This document shows positions 59 to 19,825 of a DNA stretch of 64,000 bases, piece after piece. Position 1 is the stretch's first letter; every line of letters starts with the position of its first letter. The stretch covers positions 434,001-498,000 of the forward strand of contig JAYJMM010000068.1 in assembly GCA_037349105.1 (NCBI GenBank), given 5' to 3'. The notes beneath the pieces were generated by a model, which was given only the letters and a program-made list of their open reading frames with translations, was not told where the DNA came from and ran no database searches. Made by a program: the position numbers and the translations under genes. Origin of the DNA: Limnomonas spitsbergensis (Eukaryota; Chlorophyta; Chlorophyceae; Chlamydomonadales).

Positions 59-2035
59 GTGGCAAGGGTTGCGCAGCGGACCAAAGATGAGCCCAGCTAT
101 CCGGATCAAAGGCCAGAGGTCGCCACAGCCCCTGGTGGGTTCCGGGGTGGCACCTGCCCAGACAGGCCGCGGATAAGAGCAGAAGGAGCGGAGGGCATGA
201 GTATGCCTGCAGGGGTCAAACGCGAGGGGGCTGAGGCCCAGCCAGCGGTGAACAGGCAGGACTCGCAGGTCAGCAAGGAGAGGGAAAAATCAGCTGTGCC
301 GGTGGGAAAGCCTTGGGCTGACCTAATATCCGACCTGTGGAAGCAAGTTTGCTCCAAGACGTTCTTGCATTTCCAGGACCAAGTCACAGCCATTGAGGAG
401 TTCAAGGCCCATCATCTGCAGGGATGGGCAACAAAGGCCATGATGGGTATTCCCCACACAGGGCAGGACAGGGCGACGCTGTTAGCCGCCCTTGGACAGG
501 TGTCCAAGGGAGGGGCGGGACGCGAAGCAGCCCTGGCTGTTAAGGCCTTCGCAGATGAATGGTGCAACGAGGTAACAGGAAATCAGGTGGAACCTGGATC
601 CGAGCCAGAGGATGAGGAGGACCAGGCATGGGAAGGATTTCAAACAGCGGTGCAACGGCCGGAGGAGCTCAGGGAGGTCCAAATGTGGCAGCAGCATGCA
701 AGGGCCGCGCCAACCCCAACACTCAGATCTGAAGTTTTCGAGGTCAGCAGCGAGCCAAGCCTCAGGGGGGGGCCAAGGGGCAGGGAAGCGCCCAGAGCCA
801 GCAGCCCAGCCGCCAGCGAAAGGGCGGAGTTGACTAGCCGATCGCTTGCCAGGATGGCAGAGCAAGGCGTAGCAACACGCAGAGCAAACAGGCAAGAGTC
901 GTATGCACTGCTGCGCATAGTCGAGGACATGCTGCATTATGCATGGCAGACAGTTCATGCCAGAAGGGGGACGGTGCTGCATCATGCATGGCAGGCCACA
1001 TGCCAGGAAACCCATGTGGATTACATCGAGGAATTCCTGAGGAACAGGCAGGCGTGCCCAGCAAGAGGAACCAGGCAGGATGAGTCTGCAGGCAGTGTGC
1101 GAAGCAGTGGACCAAGAAGGCAGGAAGCCAGAGATGAAACGCAGTCTGATTTCTACGCCAGGAATTACACAGGCGGGACGCAACCAGGCTGGCAGAGCCA
1201 GGGTCCGCTCAGGGGGCAGGCAGACGGCGAAGAACAGCCGCATTGGCAAAGCCAGGAGCCTCCCAGGGGGCAGGCATACAGCAGAGAACAGCCAAGCTGG
1301 TACAGTCAGGAGCCGCCCATGAGGCAGGCAGATGGCAGGGAACAGCCAAGCCGGCATAGCCAGGAGCCGCCCAGAGGGCAGGCAGATGGCAGGGAACAGC
1401 CAAGCCGGCAAAGCCAGGAGCCGCCCAGGGGACCAGCTGAACACAGCGGAGGGACGCAGAAAGATTGGCAAAACCAGGAGCCGCCCAGGGGGCAGGCTGA
1501 ACCTAGCAGAGCGCAGCCTTGGAGGCCCGGCTCTGACAGCAGACCAAGCAGAAGTGAGTCTGAACGGCCGCCACCTGATGGGAGTAGAAGCTCCGCAGGA
1601 AGAGCAGGCAGACAGCCGTCACGAGAAGATCATGCTCAGGAGGAAGATGATAACAGACATGACAGGTACCATTCAGGTCGCAGCCCATCGGGGGGCGGCG
1701 GAGGCGGATCTGGGTCACGGTCAGAATCAGTAGATTCGGGACCAGGAGGAGCGGACAGGCGCATGCCGGGGGCCAGGCAGGAGTCCAGCGACCAAGAATT
1801 GAAAAGGCTCGATAGGGAGCAGGCAAGGGTGAACCTGCAGCTGCAGCAGCAGATGGTCCTGCAGCTGACAGGGGTAGCCAAATTCACCAAAATCCCAGCT
1901 ATCCAAGGCAACGTGCCGGTATTGGATATGCCGCACCCGGGCGCGGTTGCCAGGCGTGTGGATATTGGGGATCGCACAACAGGCTGGCGCTGTCAGATGA
2001 CCCGCCAGCCCTGGCTGTGGTGGCCGGAGAAATAG
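59..2035 (+). CDS. Retrotransposon ORF1, gag-like, low-complexity C-terminal half
   Basis: Open for 658 codons from a GTG; no convincing start is visible and the true 5' end may lie upstream. It has no domain I recognise. The first third has a mixed composition with hydrophobic and Trp residues around codons 95-185 and could be a capsid-like region. The middle holds about six copies of an 18-residue Q/P/R/S-rich repeat, and the end is Ser/Gly/Arg-rich with a short basic, Gln-rich helix (RVNLQLQQQMVLQ). It overlaps the next ORF by 19 nt in the -1 direction, an arrangement seen where retroelements shift frame between gag segments. Gag role is inferred from position only. Confidence 0.5.
   Translation: MARVAQRTKDEPSYPDQRPEVATAPGGFRGGTCPDRPRIRAEGAEGMSMPAGVKREGAEAQPAVNRQDSQVSKEREKSAVPVGKPWADLISDLWKQVCSKTFLHFQDQVTAIEEFKAHHLQGWATKAMMGIPHTGQDRATLLAALGQVSKGGAGREAALAVKAFADEWCNEVTGNQVEPGSEPEDEEDQAWEGFQTAVQRPEELREVQMWQQHARAAPTPTLRSEVFEVSSEPSLRGGPRGREAPRASSPAASERAELTSRSLARMAEQGVATRRANRQESYALLRIVEDMLHYAWQTVHARRGTVLHHAWQATCQETHVDYIEEFLRNRQACPARGTRQDESAGSVRSSGPRRQEARDETQSDFYARNYTGGTQPGWQSQGPLRGQADGEEQPHWQSQEPPRGQAYSREQPSWYSQEPPMRQADGREQPSRHSQEPPRGQADGREQPSRQSQEPPRGPAEHSGGTQKDWQNQEPPRGQAEPSRAQPWRPGSDSRPSRSESERPPPDGSRSSAGRAGRQPSREDHAQEEDDNRHDRYHSGRSPSGGGGGGSGSRSESVDSGPGGADRRMPGARQESSDQELKRLDREQARVNLQLQQQMVLQLTGVAKFTKIPAIQGNVPVLDMPHPGAVARRVDIGDRTTGWRCQMTRQPWLWWPEK
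1190..1510 (+). repeat. 54-60 bp coding tandem repeat within ORF1
   Basis: GCAGGCAGA-type unit starts occur near 1214, 1271, 1325 and 1379, with diverged units near 1431 and 1492. The best-preserved units are 54 bp and encode 18-residue repeats like GQADGREQPSRHSQEPPR. Unit length is a multiple of three, so copy-number change keeps the frame. Confidence 0.8.
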
Positions 2036-3420
2036 CTGGGTCGTGCCAGTCACCACCGGTTATGACAATGCTGGTGAAATCGCTGGTCAAGCTATGGGAC
2101 AGCAAGCCGGCTAGCGTGGGGCCGCTGATGGTAGCCATCAGGGCGGCGCCCCATGCAGGAGACAGGGCTGCCAGAGAAGTGGAAAGGATCAGGGGGCTGT
2201 GGATTGCCCCAGCAGAGGAGCAGTGCTGCGAAGCCTCGCTGCTAACCTTGTGGATCAAGGTGGTTCAAGCAGAAGTGGGGAAGCCAACCTCAGATGAGAG
2301 GACAGCCATCTCCAACCGCAAGCTAGGAGTGAAGACCACTCTCGACCCTGACGTCAAGCCAGAGGAGACGGTGGAAGCATTTGCTCACAGAGTACTGTCG
2401 ACAGCAGAGTTGCTGCAGATCTCAAGGGATGCAGTGGACCACTTCGGCAGGAGGCACTCTGTCTCGCACCTGTTCCATGACGGACTTCCAGCGGTTGCTA
2501 AAGCCAAGCTGAGCAAGTTTGTTATGACAGTACCGGGGTACCTCAGCATGACTGATGAAGATCAGATTGCAGTGCTCACACAGCAGGTGGTGCTGTGGGA
2601 GAAGTTTGCCCTGGAAATGGGGGACCTGGGAGGTGCAAGCCTCAAGAAGATGGCCAACATCGGGCCTAGCCAGGGAGAGGCGCAGCCCAACAGAACAAGA
2701 AGGGAGAGAACAGGACAGTGGGAGATGCGGACGCGCCTTGAAGGGGCAGTGAACCCCGCAGGCTCAGCAGTTGTCCAGCAACTGCGGATTGACGGTAAAC
2801 CCATAGGAGTTACCTGGGCAGATCAATCCGGGGCACCAAATTACAGCGCAGAAGGCGCTGCGGGGGCAGCCAAGGCGTGCTACCAGTGTGGCAGCACGGC
2901 GCACCTGGCCAAGGACTGCAGGGTGCCCAGGGCCAGGGATGAGCGCAGGCCTGCGCCACTCGCTACAGACATTACAACTGGGCAGGCAAGGCCGCCGCAG
3001 CAGCAGTACCCTCTACCGCCAAGGCCACAGCAGGGTCAGACTGCAGGCAGGCCGTACGAGCGGAATCAGAACAACAGGCAGTACCAAAGGCCAGGGCCTG
3101 GCCAGGGGGGTCAGGTTCAGCAGGCGGCACACGTGTCGCACCTAAGCAGCCCAACGGGGCAAGCTGAGCCAGAAGGCTGGCACCAGACTATGGCTGAGAT
3201 GCTCAGCGAGTCTGTGGCACTAATGACGCAGATTGGGCTGGTGCCCAAGCCTGCTGAATTCAAACAGGCGGCTCACAACGCCCGCCCTAGGTCGTTCCCG
3301 CCTGAACCTTGCCAGGAGGAGGAACCTGAGCGCAGGCTCATGGAACCTGCCTCCAGGAAGGGAGCAAAGAGGCTGGTTTTGAGTAAATTGGCTGATGATA
3401 TGTCTGACATCCGCCTGTAG
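2017..3420 (+). CDS. gag: Gag-like protein with CCHC zinc knuckle (nucleocapsid)
   Basis: 467 codons to a TAG at 3418-3420. Around codons 288-301 (about 2878-2919) lies CYQCGSTAHLAKDC, a perfect C-X2-C-X4-H-X4-C retroviral-type zinc knuckle, expected to bind element RNA. The preceding roughly 250 residues (MVAIRAAPHAG to the LTQQVVLWEKFALEMG helix) resemble a retrotransposon capsid in composition and position, with predicted helices and a VKPEETVEAFAHRVLSTAELL stretch. A Pro/Gln/Arg-rich segment follows the knuckle. The same frame stays open after the TAG and enters the protease, so the stop separates Gag from the protease as in readthrough systems; whether readthrough occurs is inference. 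Confidence 0.8.
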   Translation: MVAGEIAGSCQSPPVMTMLVKSLVKLWDSKPASVGPLMVAIRAAPHAGDRAAREVERIRGLWIAPAEEQCCEASLLTLWIKVVQAEVGKPTSDERTAISNRKLGVKTTLDPDVKPEETVEAFAHRVLSTAELLQISRDAVDHFGRRHSVSHLFHDGLPAVAKAKLSKFVMTVPGYLSMTDEDQIAVLTQQVVLWEKFALEMGDLGGASLKKMANIGPSQGEAQPNRTRRERTGQWEMRTRLEGAVNPAGSAVVQQLRIDGKPIGVTWADQSGAPNYSAEGAAGAAKACYQCGSTAHLAKDCRVPRARDERRPAPLATDITTGQARPPQQQYPLPPRPQQGQTAGRPYERNQNNRQYQRPGPGQGGQVQQAAHVSHLSSPTGQAEPEGWHQTMAEMLSESVALMTQIGLVPKPAEFKQAAHNARPRSFPPEPCQEEEPERRLMEPASRKGAKRLVLSKLADDMSDIRL

Positions 3421-4692
3421 GTGTTCAGGCTGAACGAAAGGCTGACATCGTTGTCCTTTACCACTATGCCCATGGGTTCAGACGATCACAGGGGTGAGGC
3501 CAGTAAAGGCAGGCAGGAGAGCAGGGCTGTGACAGCTGCACCCAAGCTGCAGTACTTTAAGAATGACAGAAGCAACCTGGAACAATGTGTGGGACTTATG
3601 GTAAAAGGGAAAGTCCTGGTGGCTCAGAAAGCCCTCATGGACTCAGCATGCTCCTGTCATGTGATCACCGTCAACATCGCTGAACAGTTAGTCGCCATGG
3701 GGGCTGAGCTGATCCGTACGGATGAGAAAATCCGTACCACAGACAATGCAGGGGCAGATCTGTATGGGGTGCTATTCATTTATGTGGTGTACGGGTACGG
3801 TGGGCCCAACGCCATTATGAAACCCACGGTGGTCAGGGTCGTTAAGACGCCACCCGATGCATATGAACACTTGGTAGGGAACCCGGAGTTTCTCAAGTAC
3901 AGCGGGATGTTGGAGGCAGCAGGAAGGCTGACCTTACGCCCCAGAGAAGGTCCCCAGAGGGCACGGGGGGTCAGGGACCTCACGCTGCCGCTGGTGCTGG
4001 CATCCCCGGCAGGGGGGTACCAGGCAGCAGCAGTGGCGTGGGCAGGAATCCAGTGCGGATTATTAGAACGAGAAGGGTGGCCTGCAACCAGTGTTGAAGA
4101 AGAACACGAGCCACTCTTACAGCATGCCATGGCCACACACGCAAGTGCCGCCATGCGGGCTGAACAAGAAGGGGGGCAGAGCCGCGGAAAAGCCGCAGAT
4201 GCAGGCAGAAGTGCCGCAGATGCAGGCAGGAGTAGCCGTGGGGGCCCACAGGAGGTCCCTTCCAGGCCGCGCCAGCACAGGCAGGTGTCGGCTGCAGTGC
4301 CCAGGGAGGGCAAGGTGGAAGCAAGGGCTGCTGCATCACAGCAGAGCCAGGCGGCAGCACATGCAGAGGCCGGTGCTGCAGTATCAGATGAGACAAAGAG
4401 GGCGTGCAAGGCAGCATTGATGCCAGCATCAGAGAAGGAAATCATCAGGAGGTGCTTGGCGTCAAGCCCAAGCCACCCGTGCGTCTTGTGCGGAGCGCCA
4501 AGCCAGCACTCACCAGAGGAGTGTGAGCAGAGGATCCGGGAACTGACGCAGAGTTCTGTGGCAGTCCCCGCGGCCCAGGTGGCATCACCAGTGGCAACGC
4601 AGAGGGTGGCATTCGGGGCAGCTGCAGCTGGAAGCGGGATCAGCAAGGCGCTCGGAGGTGCGAGTACCCAGCAGGGGCGAGAGGGCTTGTGA
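3421..4692 (+). CDS. Retropepsin-like aspartic protease ORF
   Basis: 423 codons in the same frame as the knuckle-bearing Gag ORF, directly after its TAG stop. The sequence ALMDSACSCHVIT, Asp codon at 3640-3642, matches the retropepsin active-site region (hydrophobic-hydrophobic-Asp-Ser/Thr-Gly/Ala). It is followed by a beta-rich stretch and a flap-like DNAGADLYGVLFIYVV segment. DSA instead of DSG/DTG is unusual but occurs in retroelement proteases. The C-terminal half (from about codon 230) is Ala/Gln/Arg-rich linker and ends with a CVLCGAPSQHSPEEC cluster that could bind zinc. Expected role: processing of the element polyprotein. Confidence 0.65.
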   Translation: MFRLNERLTSLSFTTMPMGSDDHRGEASKGRQESRAVTAAPKLQYFKNDRSNLEQCVGLMVKGKVLVAQKALMDSACSCHVITVNIAEQLVAMGAELIRTDEKIRTTDNAGADLYGVLFIYVVYGYGGPNAIMKPTVVRVVKTPPDAYEHLVGNPEFLKYSGMLEAAGRLTLRPREGPQRARGVRDLTLPLVLASPAGGYQAAAVAWAGIQCGLLEREGWPATSVEEEHEPLLQHAMATHASAAMRAEQEGGQSRGKAADAGRSAADAGRSSRGGPQEVPSRPRQHRQVSAAVPREGKVEARAAASQQSQAAAHAEAGAAVSDETKRACKAALMPASEKEIIRRCLASSPSHPCVLCGAPSQHSPEECEQRIRELTQSSVAVPAAQVASPVATQRVAFGAAAAGSGISKALGGASTQQGREGL

Positions 4693-5521
4693 GGAGCAGC
4701 TGCCAGGGCCGCCACAAGATACCAACTCGCGCAGGATCCCTGCGGAGACGCCGCCAGCTGGGGCAGGGCCCAGCGCGCAAACAGAGAAGACCGATGGTGG
4801 CGATGGGGGAGACGCCCCAGATGCAGAAGGCAGAACGCGGGGGGTACCAGCAAACCGCGGCCAGGGGGAGCCTGGCAGCGAGGAGGAGGAGGAAGAGCCA
4901 GAGGATTCCGATGAGGAAGAGGCCCACTAGGAGGCGATGCCCAGTAGGAAGTTCAGGCAAGTAACAAGGCTGCAAAACCAGGTGAAGGTGATGCAGCAAG
5001 ACATCAGGTGGAAAGAGGAACAGCTACTCCGCCAGACGGTAGCGACAATCGAATACCTGCGGTTGCAGCATGTCAGGTGGACGTGCCTCCAGGATGCAAA
5101 TGAGCGACTCACGGAAGTACAGCAACAGTACATCTTGCGCGCAGACCAGATGCGTGAGCTGTACATCGCCCTCGGAAACCAGCAGGCAGGAGGGCCACTG
5201 AACCAGGGGAAGCAGTTCCCAGTCCCAGTAGACATGGACCTGGCAGAGTGCTTCAGAGCAATGCTTCAGCCCCCGCCCTCGCTCACAGACGAGGAGAGCG
5301 AGAATCCCGGCCAGGGGGAGCCGCAGGAAGAGGAGCAACATGCCACAGGTCAGCAAGGACCAGGGGGCAATGACAGGGCCAGGGAGGCCAGTGCGGAGGA
5401 ACGCGCGCAGCACGGGGGAACAGCTCCAGAGGCTGCAAAAGAACCAGGGGCCCAGAGAGCGCAGCAGGAGCGCACAAAGGGCCCACAGCGTAGAACGCCA
5501 CGGGGTGGTGCCTACGCCTGA
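4658..5521 (+). CDS. Retrotransposon ORF, acidic stretch plus coiled coil, split by TAG
   Basis: One reading frame runs from 4658 to a TGA at 5519-5521, broken by a TAG at 4928-4930. The first part ends in a run of Glu/Asp (EEEEEEPEDSDEEEA). The second part has a long helix with heptad-like spacing (QVTRLQNQVKVMQQDIRWKE), probably a coiled coil for oligomerisation. No catalytic motif was seen. It overlaps the preceding protease ORF and the following knuckle ORF in other frames. Function unknown; an additional structural (gag-like) protein is plausible because another zinc knuckle follows. Confidence 0.4.
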
Positions 5522-6044
5522 GGCTAGGACCCAGCGGCCGGACCGCGCTGAACGATACAACCAGCCTGACGAACAAGGCAGGGGCAGAAGGCAGCGGTCA
5601 CCCAGCAGGGAACGTGGGAGCCAGCCCAGGGGCAGGTCACAGGAGCGTGGCTCAGGTGGTCAAGCCAGGACATACAGGCGGGAGGAGAGAGAGCAGGATA
5701 AGAGGAGAGCCTCCGGCCAGAGTCCGCCGGGCAGGGCCCAGGCAGGGCGCATTTGGATGGGGGGACAGAAGAGCGTCCTCGGACCCCATGATGGGGGAGT
5801 CTGCTTCAATTGCTTGAAGCCAGGTCACTACGCTAATGCGTGCCCAGAGCAGGGAGAGGCCTTGCAGGCAGGCGAGAGCAGCCGCTTCGACCGGCTGCGA
5901 GCGCCAGCAGGCCCAGAGCGGGGCTGGGGAGTCAGGGGGCCTGGCAGGAGCCAGGACGCCTCAGAAGACAGCATGCGGCGGGCATATGAGGCTGCCCAGG
6001 GGAACTCATACGCAGACTGGAGGGAGCTGCAGACGGCAGCATGA
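5340..6044 (+). CDS. Second CCHC zinc-knuckle ORF of the retrotransposon
   Basis: 234 codons, Arg/Gln/Ser-rich, with CFNCLKPGHYANAC around 5802-5843, again a perfect C-X2-C-X4-H-X4-C knuckle. Two knuckle proteins in one element, one on each side of the protease, is unusual. The N-terminal basic stretch (RRQRSPSRERGSQPRGRSQER) is typical of an RNA-binding nucleocapsid. This could be a duplicated gag, a captured gag from another element, or part of a long second gag polyprotein. Confidence 0.6.
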   Translation: MPQVSKDQGAMTGPGRPVRRNARSTGEQLQRLQKNQGPRERSRSAQRAHSVERHGVVPTPEARTQRPDRAERYNQPDEQGRGRRQRSPSRERGSQPRGRSQERGSGGQARTYRREEREQDKRRASGQSPPGRAQAGRIWMGGQKSVLGPHDGGVCFNCLKPGHYANACPEQGEALQAGESSRFDRLRAPAGPERGWGVRGPGRSQDASEDSMRRAYEAAQGNSYADWRELQTAA

Positions 6045-6262
6045 CCAAGTGTGCTGCCAGGCCCGCCAGGATGGCCGGGGCCAGCAGGGCAGTCAGAAGA
6101 TTCCAGGTGGGCAGATCAAGAGAGGCACATTTGCCTGATGTCTATTTACGGGGGATATGGCCAGGACACAGGCGCAGATCAGGTTGAAAGCAACCAAGCA
6201 GCAGAGGTACCTGTCGCCTTCCAAGTGGTGCCAGAGGGGCAGATAGCCCGGCAAAAACACCA

Positions 6263-7039
6263 TTGGAAGATGGCATTGGAATCCCTGGCAATGAACCATT
6301 ATGGTACTATGCCAGCAGGTTCAGCCAGATCCATGGCACACGCAGTGGGTTTCCTGGGGGCCTCCAGCAGAGGGGGTGCCCAGCCCCGTGTGAGGGATGG
6401 CCTGGCATGTTCCAGCGATTCCTAACCAAAGAATGGGACAATTATGATGCCCAGATGGATGAGTTTGAGAGGCTAGAGCGGGAGGCAGTGCCCCAGCACA
6501 GAGTAGAAGAGTGGGAGACCAGTTCCAGTGGGGACGGCTCCAACTTCTCAGAGGGAGGCTACGAGCCTCAGGACCCTTTAACATTGCGTGAGGAGGAGGC
6601 TGCCTTGTTCTGTCCAGGTACCCCGGAGGGCAACAACGACACAGGCGGCGAGGTAGCGGGGGCAGCCGCCAAGATCCGGGATCCGCTCAGCGAGCAGGTT
6701 CGCCACCCAAGGGCCAGGGGGGCGGCAGCTATGAGTCAAGAGGACGATATGGCGGGGCCCGTTGGACCCATCACAGTACCACCTCTCAGTACAATCTTGG
6801 AAGATGGGAAGAGGCGGACAGAGAGCCGCAGCGCAGCCGCAGCAGGGACGGGAGGTCCGCTGTGTGGAGTTAGGATTCCCAGTTCGACCAGGCCGGTGAG
6901 GACCGCCGCGACAGGTCGGGCAGCAGAGGGCGTATTCGCCCCGTGCCAGACCCGCCGAGCCCGCCAGAGAGCAGGTGCTTCGTGCAGTGGTACCGCCTGG
7001 GGGAAGAGATGCCAGAGGCGTCGTCTTCGGAGGCCATGA
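6263..7039 (+). CDS. Unrecognised retrotransposon ORF
   Basis: 258 codons, acidic in the middle and Arg/Ala-rich at the end. I recognise no domain. It overlaps the following ORF by about 97 nt in another frame. It may belong to the long second gag-like region between protease and reverse transcriptase. Confidence 0.3.
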   Translation: MEDGIGIPGNEPLWYYASRFSQIHGTRSGFPGGLQQRGCPAPCEGWPGMFQRFLTKEWDNYDAQMDEFERLEREAVPQHRVEEWETSSSGDGSNFSEGGYEPQDPLTLREEEAALFCPGTPEGNNDTGGEVAGAAAKIRDPLSEQVRHPRARGAAAMSQEDDMAGPVGPITVPPLSTILEDGKRRTESRSAAAAGTGGPLCGVRIPSSTRPVRTAATGRAAEGVFAPCQTRRARQRAGASCSGTAWGKRCQRRRLRRP

Positions 7040-7740
7040 TCACTCTGCCAGCAGAGTCCAAGGACGGGCTGTGTAGGTTGCAGAACCACAGGCTCCTGGA
7101 AGGCAGGACGCAGACGTGCGTAAACATAATGACAGCCATGCAGGCCGTGGCCATGATGATTTTCCCGTGGGACGCGGTGACCGCAGTACTGCTGGGCGCA
7201 GCACTCAAAGGGTTCATACGGCCCAGCACGAGGATGGCGGATTCTATGCAGAGGGGGTGGTCACGGCACCCCATCTACGCATACTGCGTACATGAGATGG
7301 TGGGCCTGGCCATCAAAGAAGGCATCACAGCGGTGGACGCAGCCGACAGGGCGCACCCAGACGTGCCTGACAGCACGCGCACCGAGGGGATGTGGAAGGG
7401 CGCGCAGCCTGGGTTCATGCGCACGCCGTGGGCAGAGGATTGCGTCCATCAGTTGATGGAGCATCCCGCTCTCAGAGACCGCGCTTTCTACGTGCCCGTG
7501 CAGGCCATAGGAGGGCACGGAAGGGGTGATGGGTCAGCGGATGGAACCTACGACGGGGCAGGGCTGTGCCATTCCGGCAGGCCAAGGCGGTGTGAGGCCA
7601 CCATTGAGGCGTCAGTCATCATCCCCAGGATGGTCGCAGGTCAAGCTGTACCGTGGGGAGTGGCTTCTGGGGAAGCCAGGGCAGCCATCACAGTACAGCA
7701 GCTGGTATCTTACTACTACGAGGAGCTGCAAGAGGGATAA
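6943..7740 (+). CDS. Unrecognised retrotransposon ORF, helical, capsid-like composition
   Basis: 265 codons ending with TAA at 7738-7740; the next ORF begins immediately in the same frame, so the two may once have been one protein. The sequence is well mixed and looks globular (TCVNIMTAMQAVAMMIFPWD; HEMVGLAIKEGITAVDAADR), unlike the low-complexity ORFs around it. No family recognised. Confidence 0.4.
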   Translation: MPDPPSPPESRCFVQWYRLGEEMPEASSSEAMITLPAESKDGLCRLQNHRLLEGRTQTCVNIMTAMQAVAMMIFPWDAVTAVLLGAALKGFIRPSTRMADSMQRGWSRHPIYAYCVHEMVGLAIKEGITAVDAADRAHPDVPDSTRTEGMWKGAQPGFMRTPWAEDCVHQLMEHPALRDRAFYVPVQAIGGHGRGDGSADGTYDGAGLCHSGRPRRCEATIEASVIIPRMVAGQAVPWGVASGEARAAITVQQLVSYYYEELQEG

Positions 7741-9948
7741 ATGCCCGTTTCAGCGGCATGGATCCACATGCATGCATCGCAAGATGACATGCCAGTCTTC
7801 CTGTTCGCAAGGAGCAAAGGAAATGTAGCGATCACCAAGTGCGCATCAGTGGACGAGGCAGAGTTCCACGCACACACACACGCCAGGGGAGCAGACCCAG
7901 CAACGTGGGCGGTCATGCTCATGGCGCTGCAGCGGGACATGCTGCCAGGACAGCTATCAGCAGCCATGCGGCACGTGTGGAGAGTGGATGATCAGTGGGC
8001 ACCGGTGGAGGTGACAGACTGCCCCACATGGCCATATGGGACCCAGAGGTCGCCTGCAGATGGGTCCATGTGGGAAGGAGAAGAGGAGCTAGCGCGCTCG
8101 CCGTTCGCAGTGGAGCGGTTGCAAGCGTGCGTGCACCAGTGGGTGCGTTGGGAGAGGAGAGCGTGGCGTGACAACAGGGACAGCAGCGTGGCGCCTTATT
8201 GGCAGGCAGACGTCATGACAGTGCAACTGTGGAGGCAAGCGCACCCGGCAGGGGTGAGCTCGCTGCATCCCTTGTTCAGAGGGACAGGATCAGACACCTA
8301 CGAGGAGGAGCTGGAAGAACTGAGGAACCAACCCGTGCTGGGGCGCTGGATAGTGGGCAGACATGGATCCCACTGGTGGGACCCCACTGCCGACAGCGAC
8401 GGACCGGTCCAGGAAACGTTTGAGCCGCCAGAACAGTTGCATGTGGCTTTTTTCACCACACTCGGGGCAACAGCATCCTCTTGGGAATGGCTGGAGCCCC
8501 TGGAGGAGATGGAGGTGTCAGCACCGGATACTGAGCCCGGGGATAGGGCGGAGCCCCAGACGCCCCCGGACAGTACCAGCAGACCAATTGCAGGGGACCT
8601 GGACAGCGGGAACCCAAGGTCCAGCGAGGAGCTTCACTCCCGTCTGGGGGGCACGAGTCTGCTAGGAGGGGAGAGCGAAGACCCTTTGGAAGGGCCACCA
8701 TCACTGGTGAAGGATTCAGAGTCAGAAGAGGAGTGGTGCGCTGGCGGAGCCCCGTCCCCGGAGCGGATCAGCATCACAAGAGGAGAGGCTCGGGATGCAG
8801 ATAGGATGGAGGAGCCAACCGACACAGGCCCAGGACCAGGGAGTCCAGGGTGGGACCTCGAGGAGGAGTTGGTACAGCTGCGGCAACAGTGGATGAACAT
8901 CGTTAGTCAGGAGAGGGCTGCGTGCGATGAGGAGCGCAACAGCAAGAGGGAGCTGGGGGTTGGGGCGCGCCAGACCGCAGTGGGGGTCAACCCGCGGCAG
9001 GCGGCAGCCCCACATACCTCAGGCTCAGGGGTTGCAGCAGCCTGCGGAGCAGGCAGTGACCGCCCAGGGGATGCCCATTCCAGCACGCCGGTGCCGGCAA
9101 AGGCAAGGGAACCCTGGGGTGACCCAGCAGCGTACAGTACAAGATGCTGGACAGCTGTGCTAAAGACCTTTGTAGATCAGCTGGACGAGCAGAGGAGGCA
9201 GGACATGGGCCTGCAGGAAGCAGGCCAGGAGTCCAGCCTGCGGTTCCAGCTGAGAGCGCTGCCAGAGCCCGATATGGACCCAAGGATGGGAGGGTACAAC
9301 CAAGCGCTCAGGGATCTGCAAGAGGAGTTGGCGGGACAAGTATCAGCCCTCGGGAAGACAGGAGCGAAGGGAGTAGCCACCCAACAGCCATCGGACAGCC
9401 GCTGCAGCCAGGCCCCAGGAATGCAGCAGTCCAGGCCAGTTGGCCGGGTTGGTGGAGCAGCCACACGAGAGGGCAGCCAAGCATGCACCAGTGGGGTGGA
9501 CGGCCCAGCGAGGCAGTTTGCCAACGCTCGGAGAGGCATGAGACAGTGCGGGGGGCCAGAGGAGTCCGCGTGCGCAGGCAGCAGCGAGGCTGTGCAACGC
9601 GCCATTCACAGGCAGGAACAGCTGGCACAAGGCAGCACAAGACAAAACCCAGGGGCAGGGCCAGAGAGGGCCGGTACAGCTTGGGCTGACACAGCCGAGT
9701 TGCGGGGGGAAAAGTCAAAGAAGGCTAGGCGACGCGCAAGGAAGGCGCAGAAGACGGCCGAGGACAGGGACCGCGGCAGCAGGCCGGGAGTGGACTGCCC
9801 AGTCCTACCACTCAGGATCAGCCAGGTAGACCTGGAGATCACGTGGGCCAAAGGGCAGCAGAGGCCAGAACAGAGGGCAGAGCCACACGTACAGCCCACA
9901 GCGCACCAGCCGCAGGAAAACGCGCGGCAGCTGCCAGCATGCAGATGA
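7741..9948 (+). CDS. Unrecognised 735-codon retrotransposon ORF
   Basis: It starts with ATG directly after the TAA of the preceding ORF in the same frame and ends at TGA 9946-9948. The first roughly 240 residues look globular and are rich in Trp and His (SHWWDPTADSDG; WEWLEPLEE). The rest is acidic then basic low-complexity linker, ending in a Lys/Arg cluster (KSKKARRRARKAQK) that could act as a nuclear localisation or RNA-binding tail. No known domain. After the TGA the same frame is open straight into the reverse transcriptase ORF, so this may have been the N-terminal part of a giant polyprotein. Confidence 0.4.
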   Translation: MPVSAAWIHMHASQDDMPVFLFARSKGNVAITKCASVDEAEFHAHTHARGADPATWAVMLMALQRDMLPGQLSAAMRHVWRVDDQWAPVEVTDCPTWPYGTQRSPADGSMWEGEEELARSPFAVERLQACVHQWVRWERRAWRDNRDSSVAPYWQADVMTVQLWRQAHPAGVSSLHPLFRGTGSDTYEEELEELRNQPVLGRWIVGRHGSHWWDPTADSDGPVQETFEPPEQLHVAFFTTLGATASSWEWLEPLEEMEVSAPDTEPGDRAEPQTPPDSTSRPIAGDLDSGNPRSSEELHSRLGGTSLLGGESEDPLEGPPSLVKDSESEEEWCAGGAPSPERISITRGEARDADRMEEPTDTGPGPGSPGWDLEEELVQLRQQWMNIVSQERAACDEERNSKRELGVGARQTAVGVNPRQAAAPHTSGSGVAAACGAGSDRPGDAHSSTPVPAKAREPWGDPAAYSTRCWTAVLKTFVDQLDEQRRQDMGLQEAGQESSLRFQLRALPEPDMDPRMGGYNQALRDLQEELAGQVSALGKTGAKGVATQQPSDSRCSQAPGMQQSRPVGRVGGAATREGSQACTSGVDGPARQFANARRGMRQCGGPEESACAGSSEAVQRAIHRQEQLAQGSTRQNPGAGPERAGTAWADTAELRGEKSKKARRRARKAQKTAEDRDRGSRPGVDCPVLPLRISQVDLEITWAKGQQRPEQRAEPHVQPTAHQPQENARQLPACR

Positions 9949-10005: not shown

Positions 10006-11850
10006 GTGTGGCTCCTGCTGTCGGTGTGTGTCCCGGGGGCGCGAGCCACCGGGCAGGGAGTGCGGGGTGGAGGTTTCACGGCGAGCCAGGGGGCTTTTGT
10101 GTCCGGTCAAGAGGCAGCAGCGAAGCTTACATCCGGCTGGTTGCGCCCGCCAGCGGTCATCCCCATGGGGGGTGCCAGCAGGGCTGGGGGCGCCTACAGC
10201 CAGCGTGGGGACTGGCAACGCAGCAACAGCACTGGCGAGGAAGCGCCGCCCGCGGAGGACGACCCGCAGGCGGCGGAGATGATCGACATGTTCCAGCCGG
10301 GGGGAGTGGTGGAACCACCCTCGGAGTACGTCAAAACAAAGGAGGGGTGGCTGCTGGGCAAGCACCCTGACTTCACTGCGGAACAGCGTGAGAGCCTTGA
10401 GCAGAGCCTCAGGGATCGCCAAGGAGCGTTCGCTTACTCCATGGAGGATCTACCCGGCTACTGCGGCACGCAGGGTGAGTTTACGCTGGCTTTGGAAGAC
10501 GAGGTCAGTTCGTGCTTTCAGAAGTCCAGGGACATGCCACCTCCCAAGGCGGCCATTTTTAAAGAAAAATGCCAGCCGATGATACAGGCAGGTATCATCG
10601 TCAAGGTGCCCCAGGGGGGGCCTATCAAGTTTGCAGCCAACTCAGCGGTAGCAGCCAAAAAGAGTGCTGAGACTGGCGAGTGGACTGACCACCGTATAGC
10701 GCACGATATGCGCAGGTTGAACCTGCGAACGGCTAAGCAGGAGTTTGCCATTCCCAGAATGGAGACTATTTTTCAGAACCTGGGAACGGCCAAGATATTC
10801 AGCAAGGTTGATCTTAGGTCGGGGTTCATGCAGATCCCTATCAAGGCTGAGGACTAGCCTAAGACAGCTTTCTGGATGGGGCCTGACTTTTGGATGTACA
10901 CAAAGCTCAACTTCGGTCTGCGCAATGGGCCTCCCTTCTTTCAGCGTATGATGGAAGAGGAGATTGCCAGGGCAGGCCTGAGTGCTTTCTGCGTGGCATT
11001 CATTGATGACCTGCTAGTGTACAGTGATACACCGGCAGAACACATCAGGCATGTGGAGCTGATGTTGGACATGCTCCACAATGTCGGGTTGAGGGCACAC
11101 CCCGACAAGTCCCTGTTTGGGTGTGCAACGGTAGAGTACCTGGGTCACAATGTGTCGGCCCAGGGGCTCACGCCGCATGCAGCTAAGATAGCAGCGGTTA
11201 TGGCGTTGCCAGAGCCCGCGTCGGTGAAGAACATCCAGGAGGTCATGGGATTCTTGAATTTCTACCGGTGCTACATCCCGGACTTGTCGAAAAAGGCGGC
11301 ATGCATCAACGCGTTGCTGGTCAAGGGGGTCCCGTTTGTGTGGGGGCCAGAGCAGTCGCAGGCGTTCCAGCTGATCAAAACGGAAATGTGTGAGGGCGGT
11401 AGAGTCCTGCGCAGACCAGATTACAGTGGGACAGGGCCAGATGGCAGGGGGCGGCCAAGGCCCTTCTTGTTGTACACAGATTTCTCTAAGCAGGGCATTG
11501 GCGCCGTGCTAGGGCAGTGTGACGACAGCGGGCGGGAATATATGGTGGCATGCACGTCCAGATCCCTGAACAAGAGCGAGAGGAACTATTCCTCGTTCCA
11601 AGGGGAGATGCTGGCTGCAGTGTATGCAGCACGCACGTATCGCCACATGCTGTTTGGGTGCAAGGTGCATCTCATTACTGACCATGAGCCGCTCACTTAT
11701 CTCATGGACAACCAGACGTTGTTGGGCCAGCACGCTCGGTGGGCTCTCATGCTCCAAGAGCTGGACATTACCATTGTCCACCGCTCAGGAGCATGCCACC
11801 AGAATGCGGACATCCGTCCCGTCCAGGTCGCCGCTCCCATCCTCAGCTGA
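10006..11850 (+). CDS. pol: Reverse transcriptase-RNase H of Ty3/gypsy type, interrupted by TAG
   Basis: One frame with a TAG at 10855-10857 that splits the RT fingers/palm. Before it: DHRIAHDMRRLN and FSKVDLRSGFMQI (first catalytic Asp). After it: PKTAF, NGPPFFQRMM and FIDDLLVYSD, with the catalytic Asp pair at 11005-11010. HPDKSLFG, VEYLGHNVS and PEPASVKNIQEVMGFLNFYR follow as in gypsy elements. RNase H shows LYTDFSKQGIGAVLG, FQGEMLAAVYA and LITDHEPL, covering the D, E and D of the active site, and ends at TGA 11848-11850. A single base change at the TAG would explain the break. The copy cannot make full RT unless the stop is read through. Confidence 0.9.
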
Positions 11851-12445
11851 TCGCACGGGGGCCAGGCTTGATACAGCCGCCCCCGAGCCAGCAGTCAAGG
11901 GGGAGGCGAGTGGGAAGCAGGTAGCTTTGCTCACGGGGTTGGGCAGAGTGAACCAGCTGCATGCAGACCAGATGGTGCGCATGGCGCAGGAGGGAAGAAG
12001 GAGAGTACAAATGTTGCGGGCTGCAGAGGCAGCTTGCGTGACAGCCTCAGTGGGACAGGAGATATCCTCTGCCGCCACTGAGGACGATGATCAGGCGCAG
12101 CCTGTCAGCACGGCAGAGCAGGCGTTCAGCAACCGGGAACGAGCCAGGAATATGATCAGTGATGTACTGTCTGACTTGCCTCGGGTGACGCCACCTCACT
12201 TACATGCAGGAGTGGACACAATGTGCCTGCCGGTCCAGGCTGTGCAGGCCATGGAGGCAGAGGGAGTGGTCCTTTTCGAGCCCTTTGGAGGTATGTGCTC
12301 GGGTTTGGAAATGGTCCTCAGGGCAGGTATCCCAGTGGTGCGGTACCTGTATGCGGATATTAGTGAGGAAGTGAGGGAGATCGCTGGGGGTCATAGTGCA
12401 GTTGCACAAACGGTATCCCCAGTTGCTCCCAGTCAAAGCGTTTGA
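11624..12445 (+). CDS. Linker and N-terminal (SAM-binding) part of DNMT3-like methyltransferase
   Basis: Only the part after about 11850 is likely coding; upstream the frame is a shadow of RNase H. Near the end is VVLFEPFGGMCSGLE (about 12266-12310) followed by MVLRAGIPVVRYLYADIS, matching motif I of C5-DNA methyltransferases, the S-adenosylmethionine binding loop, and the DNMT3-like hydrophobic strand and acidic residue after it. The frame then fails at a run of five G (12386-12390). Dropping one G leads directly into the next ORF, where the catalytic motifs lie, so this is the front half of one domain split by a 1-base indel. The roughly 140 residues before motif I are an unrecognised linker. 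Confidence 0.75.
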   Translation: MQHARIATCCLGARCISLLTMSRSLISWTTRRCWASTLGGLSCSKSWTLPLSTAQEHATRMRTSVPSRSPLPSSADRTGARLDTAAPEPAVKGEASGKQVALLTGLGRVNQLHADQMVRMAQEGRRRVQMLRAAEAACVTASVGQEISSAATEDDDQAQPVSTAEQAFSNRERARNMISDVLSDLPRVTPPHLHAGVDTMCLPVQAVQAMEAEGVVLFEPFGGMCSGLEMVLRAGIPVVRYLYADISEEVREIAGGHSAVAQTVSPVAPSQSV

Positions 12446-15365
12446 TGAGGCATTCAGAGCGCTGCCCCAAGATGTGTATGCCATTACGGCGGAGCACCTC
12501 CAGGGGGCAGGCGCCCAGGACGGGCGCCAGTGGTTCATGGTAGCAGGCTGGGAGTGCCAGGATCTTTCGTCAGCAGGCAAGGGGCGTGGACTCGAGGGGG
12601 AAAGAAGCAAGTCTTTCTTCCCGTTAGTCAAGTTGTTGGGCACATTGCAGATCCTGCAGAGGCCTAGGCCGCCCGCATACCTGATTGAAAATGTAGCGAT
12701 GCAGTTAAACCAGAGGAGTGCGAAAGCAAGTGTGGATGCTTTTCATGAGGTGTGCAGGGTCCTGGGGACACCTGCACTGTTTGATGCGGCACATGTGGGG
12801 TCTTACGCCCACCGCACGTGCAACTATTGGGGAAATATCGCCCCAGCAGCGGATATTGAGTATGTGATTTGTGCATCGGAAAGGCCCCACGGGGGAGTCG
12901 TAGACGACATTCTGGACAAGGGCAGCAAGGCCCAGGTAGTCGCATGCCCAGACAATGGGGGGTATCGCATCAATGTGACAGGACATCCCAGGAGGGTGCT
13001 GCCCTGCCTGATGGCAACTCCCGCATCATATTCTTTCAGGAACGGGCAAAATGAGATGGTGTACAGACCCATGGGAGACCTACAGGAGCCCAATGCAAAT
13101 GAACGTGAACGTGCCATGGGGTACGCTGTGGGGTCCACATTGCCCCGCCCAGACTTCCCAGAGGTTGCCAGGAGGGCAGCCCTGGGCAGGTGCATGGATT
13201 CATGGGCACTAGGAGCATGGCTCAATGTCGCGCTCACATGTGCTAAAATCATACCAGAGGAGTTGAAACGCAGAGCACGGCTGCCGGGTCCGGACAGGGA
13301 TCCCGCGCTTGGTGCAACTTTAATGTCCAGCCACTACGCCCTTGCCACCGCAGGAAACGCGTGCTCTGGCAGTGGGGAAGTAGCCGCGTCGTACAGGCAG
13401 TGCCTAGGAGAATCTGCTGCGGCAGATTGGGCCGACGCAACACAGGAACCAGGTGGGAACGCGCATGTGGCAAAAGCAGATGCTGGCAGCGATGTGACAG
13501 GGGACAAAGGGGGTGAGAAAGACCCTACAGGATATCCTGCAGGACCATCGGCCAGGGTGGATGTGTGGGCAGATGAGCCTGTGTTGCGGTTTCTCCGCGA
13601 GAAAACACATGCTCCAGGAACAGAGCTAGGAGAGCAGACCAGGGTACAGCGCAGGGCCGCTCCATTCCAGTGGGAATCAGAGAGGGGAGGAGTGCTGATG
13701 AGACTCACGCCCGACGGTAGACGTTGCGTGGTGCCCAGGCCAGAGGACAGGCTGGCAGTGATCCAGGAAGCCCATGCTGGTACAGGCCATGTTGGCAGCC
13801 ACCGCACGGCTTTCATGGTCATGCAGCAACACTGGTGGCGGGGGCTCAGAGCAGCAGTCAAGAAGGTGGTGCAGGAATGTGGTGTGTGTGACAGGGCCAG
13901 GGCGTCCACATTCAATCACACACAGCCCGACCTGCACCCGCTAGCCATTGAAGGGTTGTTTTTCCGATGGGGAGTAGACCTGTGTGGACCATTCACGACC
14001 ACTCCCAGGGGCAATCGGTTTGTGATGGTGTGTGTGGAGCATTACTCCAAATGGGTGGAGTTGATCCCCATTCCAAGCAAGGCGTCAGATGTGACGGCCT
14101 TGGCTTTCTTTCAAAATGTAGTCGCAAGATTCGGGGGCTGCGCAGAGGTGGTGACGGACCAGGGAACAGAGTTCCAGGGTGAATTCCAAGACATGTTGCT
14201 GGACTGCTTCATTGATCACCGCACCACTTCTGCCAACCATCCCCAGGTAGACGGGCTGTCCGAGAGGGCTGTCCAGACCCTCAAGGTAGGCATGCGCAAG
14301 TGCTGCGAGGAGGGCAGCAACGACGAGTCCTGGGACAAAATGGTGCCTTGGGTGGCCCTAGGCTTCCGCTGCTCGCCACAGCAGGCCACGCACATGGCGC
14401 CATACGAGGTGCTATTCGGGCAGAGACCCACCTTTCCCTCCAGAGTAAGGGCGGACCTGTGGAACACAACCAAGGTGGCAACAGCAGAGGAGGCGGCAGA
14501 CCTGCTCTTGGCCAGAGTGGCCAGGATCAAGGAGGCACTGCCAGTCGCGGGTGAGCATCTGAAAATTGCGCAGCACCGCGACAAGCTGCGGTATGCACGC
14601 ATCCGTGGGGGAGGGTATGTCCCCCAGGTCAGGCGTTTCGCAGAGGGAGATTTTGTGTATGTGAGGTACTCGTCAGAGCGCCGCAGCCTCGATCCCAAGG
14701 CTAGGCCTGAGATTCTAAGGGTGAAGAAGCTGGGGGCGACGGGAACCTTGGTTCTGGAGGGGGCAGATGGCCTCACAGTAACAGAGAATGCTGTCAACTG
14801 TTCTCCGTGCCACTTGCCCAATCTCAGGGGAGTGGTTGATTTCAGTGGAACCAGGCCCAATAACAGCCTGTCTTGCGAGGTGTGCCAGCTGCCTGATCGC
14901 GGGGAAGTGATGCTTTTGTGCGATGTCTGCAACACAGGTTGGCACATGGATTGCTTGGTACCGGCACTCGAAGAGGTGCCTGAGGGCGAGTGGGTGTGCC
15001 CAAGGTGCACACCTGAAGACGAGGGAGCTGGGCCCGTTGCGATACCAGGGCCCGCTAAGGAAGCCCACAGTGTGGTGGGCCAGGGGCGGCCTAGCCCAGC
15101 AGCCAGAGCGGCTGCCAGAGTGGCTCCGGAAGCCAATGTCATGGACAAGCCTGAGGTGGAAGTTATGGCCACCAACCCAGCAACAAGACAAATGGAGCGG
15201 GACATCGCAAGGCCAATGGCGAACGGGTTGTACGACATCTCGTACACCACTGGCAGGGGAGAGGCTGTTGTCACCCCGAGGGCAGTTGCGAGAAGGGCTA
15301 AGGTGGCCAAGGAAGCGGCAAAGGAAGAAGATGAGTCAGCACTTGAAGGGTCTACTGAGACCTGA
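12396..15365 (+). CDS. DNMT3-like methyltransferase catalytic part fused to DDE integrase and PHD finger
   Basis: 989 codons, intact. Residues about 45-75 carry AGWECQDLSSAGKGRGL: the catalytic Cys (codon 12554-12556) in the DNMT3-like C-N/Q-D-L-S setting, with Glu replacing the usual Pro. YLIENV (about 12681-12695) supplies the motif VI Glu; SYAHRTCNYWGNI matches motif VIII; ERERAMGY and ALGRCMDSWALGAWL match motifs IX-X. From about residue 455 comes integrase: an HHCC zinc motif (EAHAGTGHVGSHRT, ECGVCDRA), then Asp in VDLCGPF, Asp in VTDQGTEF and Glu in GLSERAVQTLK. After an SH3-like integrase tail, CEVCQLP, CDVCNTGWHMDC and CPRC form a C4HC3 PHD finger (about 14874-15008). Inferred jobs: methylate DNA, integrate the element, and read a histone tail. 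Confidence 0.9.
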   Translation: MQLHKRYPQLLPVKAFDEAFRALPQDVYAITAEHLQGAGAQDGRQWFMVAGWECQDLSSAGKGRGLEGERSKSFFPLVKLLGTLQILQRPRPPAYLIENVAMQLNQRSAKASVDAFHEVCRVLGTPALFDAAHVGSYAHRTCNYWGNIAPAADIEYVICASERPHGGVVDDILDKGSKAQVVACPDNGGYRINVTGHPRRVLPCLMATPASYSFRNGQNEMVYRPMGDLQEPNANERERAMGYAVGSTLPRPDFPEVARRAALGRCMDSWALGAWLNVALTCAKIIPEELKRRARLPGPDRDPALGATLMSSHYALATAGNACSGSGEVAASYRQCLGESAAADWADATQEPGGNAHVAKADAGSDVTGDKGGEKDPTGYPAGPSARVDVWADEPVLRFLREKTHAPGTELGEQTRVQRRAAPFQWESERGGVLMRLTPDGRRCVVPRPEDRLAVIQEAHAGTGHVGSHRTAFMVMQQHWWRGLRAAVKKVVQECGVCDRARASTFNHTQPDLHPLAIEGLFFRWGVDLCGPFTTTPRGNRFVMVCVEHYSKWVELIPIPSKASDVTALAFFQNVVARFGGCAEVVTDQGTEFQGEFQDMLLDCFIDHRTTSANHPQVDGLSERAVQTLKVGMRKCCEEGSNDESWDKMVPWVALGFRCSPQQATHMAPYEVLFGQRPTFPSRVRADLWNTTKVATAEEAADLLLARVARIKEALPVAGEHLKIAQHRDKLRYARIRGGGYVPQVRRFAEGDFVYVRYSSERRSLDPKARPEILRVKKLGATGTLVLEGADGLTVTENAVNCSPCHLPNLRGVVDFSGTRPNNSLSCEVCQLPDRGEVMLLCDVCNTGWHMDCLVPALEEVPEGEWVCPRCTPEDEGAGPVAIPGPAKEAHSVVGQGRPSPAARAAARVAPEANVMDKPEVEVMATNPATRQMERDIARPMANGLYDISYTTGRGEAVVTPRAVARRAKVAKEAAKEEDESALEGSTET

Positions 15366-19005: not shown

Positions 19006-19825
19006 CTGCCATGGAGGCGTGGAGGCAGGCTTGGAGGCATGGAGGCATGTATGGAGGCAGGGAGGCAGGCAGGGAGGCAGGCAGGGAGGCAGGGAGGCAG
19101 GCATGGAGGCCTGAAGGCAGATATAGAAACAGGGAGGCAGGCATGGAGGCAGGGAGGCAGGCATGGAGGCATGGAGGCAGATATAGAAGCAGGGAGGCAG
19201 GCATGGAGGCATGGCGACAGGCAGGGTAGCATGGAGGTAGGTATAGAAGCAGAGAGGCAGGAGGGAGGCAGGCGTGGAGGCATGGAGGCAGGGAGTCAGG
19301 CGTAGAGGCATGGAGGCATGGAGGCAGGCATGGAGGCAGGCAGGGAGGCGGGCATGGAGGCGGGCAGGGAGGCATGGAGGCAGGCAGGGAGGCAGGGAGG
19401 CAGGCAGGGAGGCAGGCATGGAGGTGGGCAGGGGGCGGGCAGGGAGGCATGGAGGCAGGCATGGAGGCAGGCAGGGAGGCAGGCATGGAGGCAGGCAGGG
19501 AGGCAGGCAGGGAGGAGTGGAGGTAGGCATGGAGGCAGGCAGGGAGGCAGGCAGGGAGGCAATCAGGGAGGCAGGCAGGGAGGCTGGGAGGCAGGCAGAG
19601 AAACATGCAGGTAGGCATGGAGCCTTGGAGGCATAATGGCATGGATGCAGGCAGGGAGGCGGGCAGGGAGGCGGGCATGGAGGCGGGCAGGGAGGCATGG
19701 AGGCAGGCAGGGAGGCAGGCAGGAAGGCATGGAGGCAGGGAGGCAGGCAGGAAGGCAGGCAGGGAGGCAGGCAGGGAGGCAGGCAGGGAGGCAGGCATGG
19801 AGGCATGGAGGCAGGGAAGCAGGCA
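19006..19825. repeat. Minisatellite of GGCA/GGGA-type short units
   Basis: About 820 bp of imperfect GGAGGCAGGCAGGGAGGCAT-like sequence built from 4-bp modules (GGCA, GGGA, TGGA). It is purine-rich on the plus strand. Long Cys/Pro/Leu-rich minus-strand ORFs and Gly/Arg-rich plus-strand ORFs across it are by-products of the repeat. Confidence 0.95.

What the first reader, a model, noticed from the sequence alone, without database searches (positions are those of the whole stretch)
12260..13240. DNMT3-like cytosine methyltransferase inside a Ty3/gypsy pol region
Seen: motif I (LFEPFGGMCSGLE), catalytic CQDLS, ENV, motif VIII AHRTCNYWGNI and an LGRCMDSW motif X, all between RNase H and integrase. 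Known: as I recall, cytosine methyltransferases have been reported in retrotransposons of a few lineages (dinoflagellates and charophytes), so the principle exists but is rare. The AHR...YWGN and C-Q/N-D-L-S signatures point to the DNMT3 side of the family rather than DNMT1. Inferred: the element may methylate its own or target DNA, or its cDNA, to hide from host defence or to choose insertion sites.
Basis: partly seen in the sequence, partly recalled or inferred. Interest (0 to 1): 0.88.

Follow-up and report, generated by a model that had tools for sequence, protein, structure and literature searches.

The report
DNA methyltransferase inside algal retrotransposons
A jumping gene of a kind found in green algae carries its own DNA-methylating enzyme, kept intact in most relatives examined but dead in those of Chlamydomonas reinhardtii and its kin, which gives a way to ask what the enzyme does for the element.

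Summary
Confirmed. Window 12245-13247 encodes a C5-cytosine methyltransferase (MT), in two frames, between RNase H and integrase of a Ty3/gypsy pol. It is not peculiar to this copy: of 120 proteins listed by an RT-RH search, 94 reach the integrase; 86 carry the MT there, 8 do not (2 of these from an arthropod). 81 of the 86 also carry a PHD finger. Named hosts include chlorophytes (Haematococcus, Monoraphidium, Cymbomonas, Chlamydomonas). A sister MT group with order protease-MT-RT occurs in streptophytes (Closterium, a liverwort). Profile and predicted folds lie nearest DNMT3A/3B. Catalytic Cys, Glu and Arg are kept in 85 of 92 full domains. In a lineage whose named hosts are C. reinhardtii, Pleodorina and Tetrabaena the domain persists without them and diverges faster. 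Best reading: the MT methylates the element's new DNA copy; activity is untested, this copy is broken, and its own genome could not be searched. DNMT-carrying retrotransposons are known (PMC5890265), so this is a variant, wider in range and with a natural dead-enzyme control.

The parts
2878..2919 (+). gag-type CCHC zinc knuckle in ORF 1816-3420
   Evidence: (zf-CCHC E 0.0037, below the curated cut-off)
3631..3660 (+). possible aspartic-protease motif (ALMDSACSCH); read by eye only
   Evidence: no Pfam family for the ORF at E<=0.1
5802..5843 (+). second CCHC zinc knuckle in ORF 5232-6044
   Evidence: (zf-CCHC E 1.3e-4, above the cut-off)
10249..11814 (+). reverse transcriptase and RNase H, frame 1, with one in-frame stop
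   Evidence: RVT_1 6e-15, RT_RNaseH 6.7e-31; tblastn by relatives
11813..12244 (+). linker between RNase H and MT, frame 2
12245..12397 (+). MT domain, N-terminal part with motif I (EPFGG 12278-12292), frame 2
12396..13247 (+). MT domain, rest: motif IV GWECQDLS 12546-12569, VI LIENV 12681-12695, VIII AHRTCNYWGN 12807-12836, IX-like VLPCLMA 12996-13016, X LGRCMDSW 13182-13205; frame 3
13743..14243 (+). integrase: H2C2 zinc-binding domain and rve core
   Evidence: Integrase_H2C2 1.7e-11, rve 2.5e-10
14637..14663 (+). integrase C-terminal stretch (FAEGDFVYV), perhaps of the SH3-like/GPY-F type; name recalled
   Evidence: no family model matched it
14874..15008 (+). PHD finger at the C-terminus of pol
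   Evidence: PHD 6.8e-11; PDB matches CHD4, WSTF, KDM5 lid

Best explanation
The segment is an old domain of pol in a large Ty3/gypsy lineage of green algae, order RT - RNase H - DNMT3-like MT - integrase - PHD finger. Most likely it works as a de novo cytosine methyltransferase, cut out of or acting within the Gag-Pol particle, that methylates the element's double-stranded DNA copy before or at integration. The new insert then looks like host-methylated DNA and escapes whatever recognises unmethylated foreign DNA, or starts life in a tolerated methylated state. Shown by sequence: identity, position, conservation, collinearity across relatives, and loss of catalytic residues in one lineage. 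Inferred: substrate, timing, benefit and PHD ligand. Identity about 0.97; copy-DNA methylation as the main function about 0.5.
For: Domain identity. Same place in relatives: 86 of the 94 RT-listed proteins that reach the integrase. Constraint: over 81 proteins with catalytic-type MT, 51 of 334 MT columns are >=90% conserved, against 51 of 296 in integrase and 73 of 418 in RT-RH. Catalytic Cys, Glu and Arg are all kept in 85 of 92 full domains of the RT-listed set and 134 of 145 of the whole set. MT distances correlate with RT-RH distances (Mantel r 0.59, p 0.001) and with integrase distances (0.70, p 0.001) in those 81, as expected of a domain inherited with the element. Dead domains diverge faster: MT/RT divergence median 3.35 in 10 dead pairs against 1.78 in 47 active pairs, so slower change goes with catalysis. 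In print: two SymbioDIRS DNMT3s methylate CG de novo in yeast (PMC5890265, passages).
Against: No activity was measured here, and the tested Ty3/gypsy relative, KnitGypsy-Dnmt3, showed none in yeast (called inconclusive there). The residue before the catalytic Cys is Glu in 95 of 137 Cys-bearing domains and Pro in only 29; Pro is near-invariant in C5-MTases (recalled), so the chemistry may differ. The MT changes faster than the core: in the 47 active pairs MT/RT divergence has median 1.78 and integrase/RT 1.35, and the active (1.00-3.44) and dead (2.19-4.13) ranges overlap. Some elements lack the domain (6 listed proteins besides the arthropod ones) or carry a dead one (8 proteins, 2 of them judged by eye on partial matches), so it is dispensable somewhere. 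There is no element-specific CpG depletion. This copy has lost the second motif-VIII Arg and its reading frame.
Confidence: 0.5

Rival explanations
1. The MT acts on host or target-site chromatin during or after integration: it methylates around the insertion, helping the element settle in silent chromatin chosen by the PHD finger and limiting its own harm.
For: MT, integrase and PHD are in one protein in 81 of 120 RT-listed proteins. PHD matches include CHD4, WSTF, KDM5 lid, BAZ2A and PHF21A; several of these read unmodified H3 (recalled). The discussion of PMC5890265 offers a slowing of transposition as one option.
Against: In the streptophyte arrangement the MT lies between protease and RT, not beside integrase (P0038, P0091), which fits a copy-DNA role better than a target role.
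Confidence: 0.25
2. The domain is mainly structural or regulatory, like DNMT3L: it binds nucleic acid or keeps the polyprotein folded, and catalysis is secondary.
For: A full-length MT-homologous domain persists without the catalytic Cys and most other catalytic residues in full-length polyproteins of C. reinhardtii, Pleodorina and others.
Against: Dead domains are the exception (6 of 92 full domains) and change about twice as fast relative to RT; elements without the domain exist.
Confidence: 0.13
3. The MT modifies RNA (the element's genomic RNA or a tRNA primer).
For: Considered for SymbioLINE-Dnmt in PMC5890265.
Against: The profile is nearer DNMT3 (6.6e-17) than DNMT2 (0.0045).
Confidence: 0.05
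4. A passenger: a host or viral gene captured by chance, without function in the element.
For: This window copy is broken.
Against: Presence in 86 of 94 relatives and conserved columns close to those of integrase.
Confidence: 0.02

Closest known systems
KnitGypsy-Dnmt3 of the charophyte Klebsormidium nitens (PMC5890265; abstract, passages and sections 9 and 11 read)
   Same: DNMT3-type MT inside the Pol ORF of a Ty3/gypsy LTR element, catalytic residues kept, purifying selection reported there.
   Different: Reported there as an independent acquisition in the K. nitens lineage, with repeats arranged as in DIRS. 'phd' and 'chlorophyte' occur 0 times in its main text. Its sequence was not at hand, so kinship with this lineage is untested.
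SymbioDIRS-Dnmt3 and SymbioLINE-Dnmt of dinoflagellates (PMC5890265)
   Same: Retrotransposon-encoded DNMTs; SymbioDIRS-Dnmt3 methylates CG in yeast.
   Different: DIRS (tyrosine recombinase) or LINE elements, not Ty3/gypsy with an rve integrase.
Methylase-bearing Ty3/Gypsy and DIRS elements of green algae, stated in one sentence of a 2019 article (PMC6338049; passages read)
   Same: Says that DAM- and DCM-encoding Ty3/Gypsy and DIRS elements were found in green algae and charophytes, among others.
   Different: No domain order, PHD finger or dead domains in the passages read; it also says that such transposons are not present in land plants, such as tracheophytes, whereas a liverwort protein with protease and MT is found here (P0092).
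DNMT3A/DNMT3B
   Same: Nearest solved sequences and folds; motif VIII AHR-type; unpermuted motif order.
   Different: No ADD or PWWP model matches the pol pieces of the window; motif IV reads ECQDLS, not PCNDLS as in the printed DNMT3A alignment; identity 23-27% in the fold table.
DRM (plant)
   Same: Matched by the profile about as well as HhaI (DRM2 1.8e-09; 4onj 6.3e-11, DRM by recall).
   Different: DRM is rearranged (VI-X before I-V; PMC9861306 passage); the element's MT is not.

Membership tests
C5 cytosine methyltransferase (PF00145) | Motifs I, IV (Cys), VI (ENV), VIII and X in order | tested here: met
   in this copy motif I is in another frame and the second motif-VIII Arg is Cys
C5 cytosine methyltransferase (PF00145) | Pro before the catalytic Cys in motif IV (near-invariance recalled) | tested here: not met
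   Glu in this copy and in 95 of 137 Cys-bearing relatives; Pro in 29
[quoted passage not shown]
   No host DNMT3 set was at hand for a tree; profile E-values and folds put DNMT3 nearest
DNMT3 family | De novo CG methylation | not testable with these tools
   needs an assay
DRM | Permuted motif order | tested here: not met
   Motifs run I to X
Ty3/gypsy pol | RT-RNase H followed by an rve integrase in one pol | tested here: met
Ty3/gypsy element | Flanking LTRs | tested here: inconclusive
   The gag-type ORF is already open at window base 2, so the 5' end lies before the window; no direct-repeat pair flanks the element in 1-22000 at length 40 and seed 14
DIRS with Dnmt3 (SymbioDIRS type) | Tyrosine recombinase instead of rve integrase | tested here: not met
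   rve integrase
KnitGypsy-Dnmt3 | Direct sequence kinship of MT and RT | not tested

The most novel reading that the evidence does not exclude
A DNMT3-like domain has been a standard part of pol in a Ty3/gypsy lineage spanning both branches of green plants, in a phylum (Chlorophyta) where two surveys report no host DNMT3. Its catalysis is kept only where the host makes enough use of 5mC: in elements of Chlamydomonas reinhardtii and volvocine hosts it has become a dead, DNMT3L-like remnant. With the PHD finger the polyprotein is a split counterpart of DNMT3 (histone reader plus methylase) that ties insertion-site choice to methylation of the new copy.
Probability: 0.18. Interest if true: 0.85.

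Novelty: new variant of a known kind. Interest (0 to 1): 0.62.

Why it matters
Why retrotransposons carry DNA methyltransferases is open (PMC5890265 calls the role unclear). This lineage offers a natural experiment: related elements with a live domain, a dead one, or none. The dead form sits in Chlamydomonas reinhardtii, a tractable model; live forms sit in other chlorophytes. Removing or swapping the domain in a laboratory alga would show directly whether methylation helps transposition, hides copy DNA, or only shapes the polyprotein. It also places DNMT3-like catalytic domains in a phylum in which host DNMT3 was not found by a transcriptome survey (PMC9998398 passage) or by a survey of 12 algal genomes reported in a review (PMC9861306 passage).

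Tried and rejected
Two independent catalytic deaths: the RT-RH tree put the dead domains in two places and an AU test rejected one clade (p 0.002). That test had left out P0144, whose gene model breaks inside the MT and which nests among them. With P0144 included one clade is not rejected (p 0.90) and the held tree is 49 log units better than the free one; the MT tree groups the 6 full dead domains (support 92). I therefore claim one death. It also means that the quick RT tree is not the best tree, so its deep order, and the number of MT losses, should not be leaned on.

The highest values are short stretches around motif IV; none of the matches spanning more than 200 query residues exceeds 30%. 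No close donor was seen among those kept. BFVD folds match C5-MTases of phages and giant viruses.

Self-methylation scar: CpG o/e is 0.57 in the element, 0.54-0.62 in three host stretches and 0.69 just after the element; uninformative.

Host 5mC as the reason for the dead lineage: a review says that V. carteri methylation is much lower and CG only, but also that V. carteri methylates transposons and repeats preferentially and that methylation is implicated in silencing transgenes there, and it speaks likewise of C. reinhardtii. That speaks against a simple absence of 5mC control in these hosts.

TAG read as Gln: the RT stop aligns by eye with a Gln of relatives, but ORF 12375-15365 runs 996 codons without a stop, so a changed code is unlikely; not tested further.

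LTRs: no direct-repeat pair flanks the element in 1-22000. tRNA scan and Rfam at gathering thresholds were empty for the window. Literature: seven searches; I saw no paper on this lineage in the listings, but the library lacks most subscription papers and bioRxiv.
Full report
What is there. Window 1 to about 15.4 kb holds most of a retrotransposon on the + strand whose 5' end lies before the window. It shows a gag-type zinc knuckle (2878-2919, below Pfam's cut-off), a second knuckle (5802-5843), RT and RNase H (10249-11814), the MT (12245-13247), an integrase with H2C2 and rve domains (13743-14243) and a C-terminal PHD finger (14874-15008). The order RT-RNase H-integrase is that of Ty3/gypsy. 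The MT reads in frame 2 up to just past motif I and then in frame 3. With the in-frame stop in RT and the frame change after RNase H this makes at least three breaks in pol, so this copy is either decayed or carries assembly errors.

Is it more than chance? A profile made from 58 relatives, not the window, finds the two MT pieces at E 1.9e-102 and 5.9e-18 among 1265 window ORFs and nothing else at E<=10; 30458 ORFs from 20 shuffles give nothing. Pfam DNA_methylase passes its cut-off on the second piece (26.3 against 22 bits).

Relatives. A search with the MT part of ORF 12375-15365 gave 45 proteins. A profile search with 12 MT domains gave 97, one of them seen before. A search with the RT-RH part of P0009 gave 471 at E<=1e-20, of which the best 120 were listed and analysed. 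Together these are 253 proteins. Each search scored only 7145-7995 candidates, so the lists are not exhaustive. The first two searches select for the MT; the third does not, though its query protein carries one. In the third set all 120 have RNase H and 94 reach the integrase. Of these 94, 86 have the MT between RNase H and integrase; 8 lack it: P0157, P0160, P0161, P0172, P0182, P0196, and the two proteins named Cordylochernes scorpioides (an arthropod by recall), P0214 and P0225. Of the 26 that do not reach the integrase, 19 show the MT and 7 do not. In the six non-arthropod proteins without MT the RNase H to integrase spacer is 178-216 residues, against a median of 637 in the 99 proteins of the whole set with RNase H, MT and integrase, so there the domain is absent rather than unrecognised. 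The PHD finger follows in 81 of the 86, and also in 5 of the 8 without MT.

Hosts. Names given by sources: Haematococcus lacustris, Monoraphidium neglectum, Chlamydomonas eustigma, C. reinhardtii, Pleodorina starrii, Tetrabaena socialis, Volvox reticuliferus (its gene model ends before the MT) and Cymbomonas tetramitiformis among chlorophytes; Closterium species, the liverwort Calypogeia fissa and a Mesvir1 entry (Mesostigma by recall) among streptophytes. Ranks were checked for Haematococcus, Closterium NIES-68, Cymbomonas, Calypogeia, Pleodorina, Tetrabaena, Monoraphidium and C. eustigma. Two proteins bear bacterial MAG names (P0063, P0166), most likely misbinned. The window's own host is not known; it has RF3-like matches below cut-off in two separated ORFs and a BTB match.

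A second arrangement. In Closterium and Calypogeia the MT follows the protease (P0038 and P0092 by precomputed Pfam domains, P0071 by eye) and in P0091 (Closterium) and unnamed P0122 it precedes RT. One MT group (13 rows, SH-aLRT 97) holds 9 Closterium rows, Calypogeia P0092, unnamed P0078 and P0117, and P0063 with its bacterial MAG name; it stands apart from the RNase H-MT-integrase rows. Motif IV begins GWECQG in 6 of the 9 rows of this kind printed, with the same Glu before the Cys. A shared origin followed by a move inside the element, or capture from a common source, are both open; the tree is a quick one, rooted only on three long bacterial branches.

Constraint and its loss. In the RT-listed set 92 domains are full length: 85 keep Cys, Glu and the first motif-VIII Arg, 1 (P0193) lacks the Arg, and 6 have lost the Cys (P0143, P0158, P0165, P0167, P0170, P0207). 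In the whole set 134 of 145 keep all three; the other 11 are those 7 and 4 with a gap at one or two of the positions. P0198 and P0227, matched over part of the domain only, also lack the motifs by eye. Over 81 proteins with catalytic-type MT, the MT has 51 of 334 columns at least 90% conserved, integrase 51 of 296, RT-RH 73 of 418; MT distances correlate with RT-RH (Mantel r 0.59) and integrase (0.70), both p 0.001. For pairs with RT-RH identity 65-95%, MT divergence over RT divergence has median 1.78 (1.00-3.44) in 47 active pairs and 3.35 (2.19-4.13) in 10 dead pairs; integrase over RT is 1.35 and 1.62. So the active MT changes faster than integrase in close pairs although its count of conserved columns is similar, the two ranges overlap, and the pairs are not independent. 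The dead domains still run nearly the full length of the model (153 bits over positions 4-336 of 343 for C. reinhardtii P0165) in full-length polyproteins; P0158 stands for 46 member sequences. Named hosts of dead domains are C. reinhardtii, Pleodorina and Tetrabaena; named chlorophyte hosts of Cys-bearing domains are Haematococcus, Monoraphidium, Cymbomonas and C. eustigma. This is one event on present evidence, so a tie to host methylation is a lead, not a test. A review read in passages says that V. carteri methylation is much lower and CG only, but also that V. carteri methylates transposons and repeats preferentially, which weakens that lead.

How it may work. Pol domains act in the particle on the copy DNA, and the MT sits among them. 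Two retrotransposon DNMT3s methylate CG in yeast (PMC5890265). The simplest reading is methylation of the new copy before insertion, selected where hosts treat unmethylated DNA as foreign; that paper's discussion proposes the same for DIRS elements. The PHD finger's PDB matches (CHD4 6.2e-20, WSTF 4.3e-14, KDM5 lid 1.6e-13, PHF21A 5.1e-12, BAZ2A 8.6e-12) suggest a histone H3 reader that could guide insertion; several of these bind unmodified H3K4 (recalled). CpG depletion is about the same in element and host and decides nothing.

What is known. PMC5890265 reports DNMT3 in Klebsormidium Ty3/gypsy and dinoflagellate DIRS elements, and a Symbiodinium-specific orphan DNMT in dinoflagellate LINEs; 'chlorophyte' and 'phd' occur 0 times in its main text. 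PMC6338049 states in one sentence that DAM- and DCM-bearing Ty3/Gypsy and DIRS elements were found in green algae, among others (passages). PMC12344493, in the passages read, mentions retrotransposon DNMT3s (LTR Copia and DIRS) as reported in streptophytes and dinoflagellates, and a ChloroDNMT lineage of chlorophytes and charophytes. PMC9998398 could not identify DNMT3 in any green algae of MMETSP (passage). I therefore file this as a new variant of a known kind. New here, as far as these searches show: the breadth of the RNase H-MT-integrase-PHD lineage in chlorophytes, the protease-MT-RT order in streptophytes and a liverwort protease-MT protein, the Glu in motif IV, and the retained dead domain in C. 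reinhardtii and kin.

Noticed in passing
window 32567-36017: About 157 copies of a 22-base unit (97% matches) lying between two ORFs with RF3-like matches below cut-off (GTP_EFTU in 30322-30795, RF3_C in 48392-48832), so perhaps a minisatellite in an intron.
   Followed up: partly
window 61499-64000: A 51-base tandem array, about 50 copies at 98% matches, running off the window end with strong GC skew.
   Followed up: no
window 19010-19825: Degenerate array of 8-, 12- and 20-base units downstream of the element.
   Followed up: no
window 1184-1431: 54-base tandem repeat (4.6 copies) in the gag-type ORF.
   Followed up: no
window 4931-9948: About 5 kb of ORFs between the protease-like region and RT with a second zinc knuckle and no other Pfam family above its cut-off; long for a Ty3/gypsy element (recalled).
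   Followed up: no
P0230, P0239, P0242 (proteins): After RNase H these proteins carry a Cys-rich stretch instead of the MT, perhaps another accessory domain or a gene-model artefact.
   Followed up: no
   Followed up: partly
whole window: CpG o/e 0.5-0.7 with TpG and mostly CpA in excess, in the element and in the flanks, as in a genome with widespread CG methylation.
   Followed up: partly
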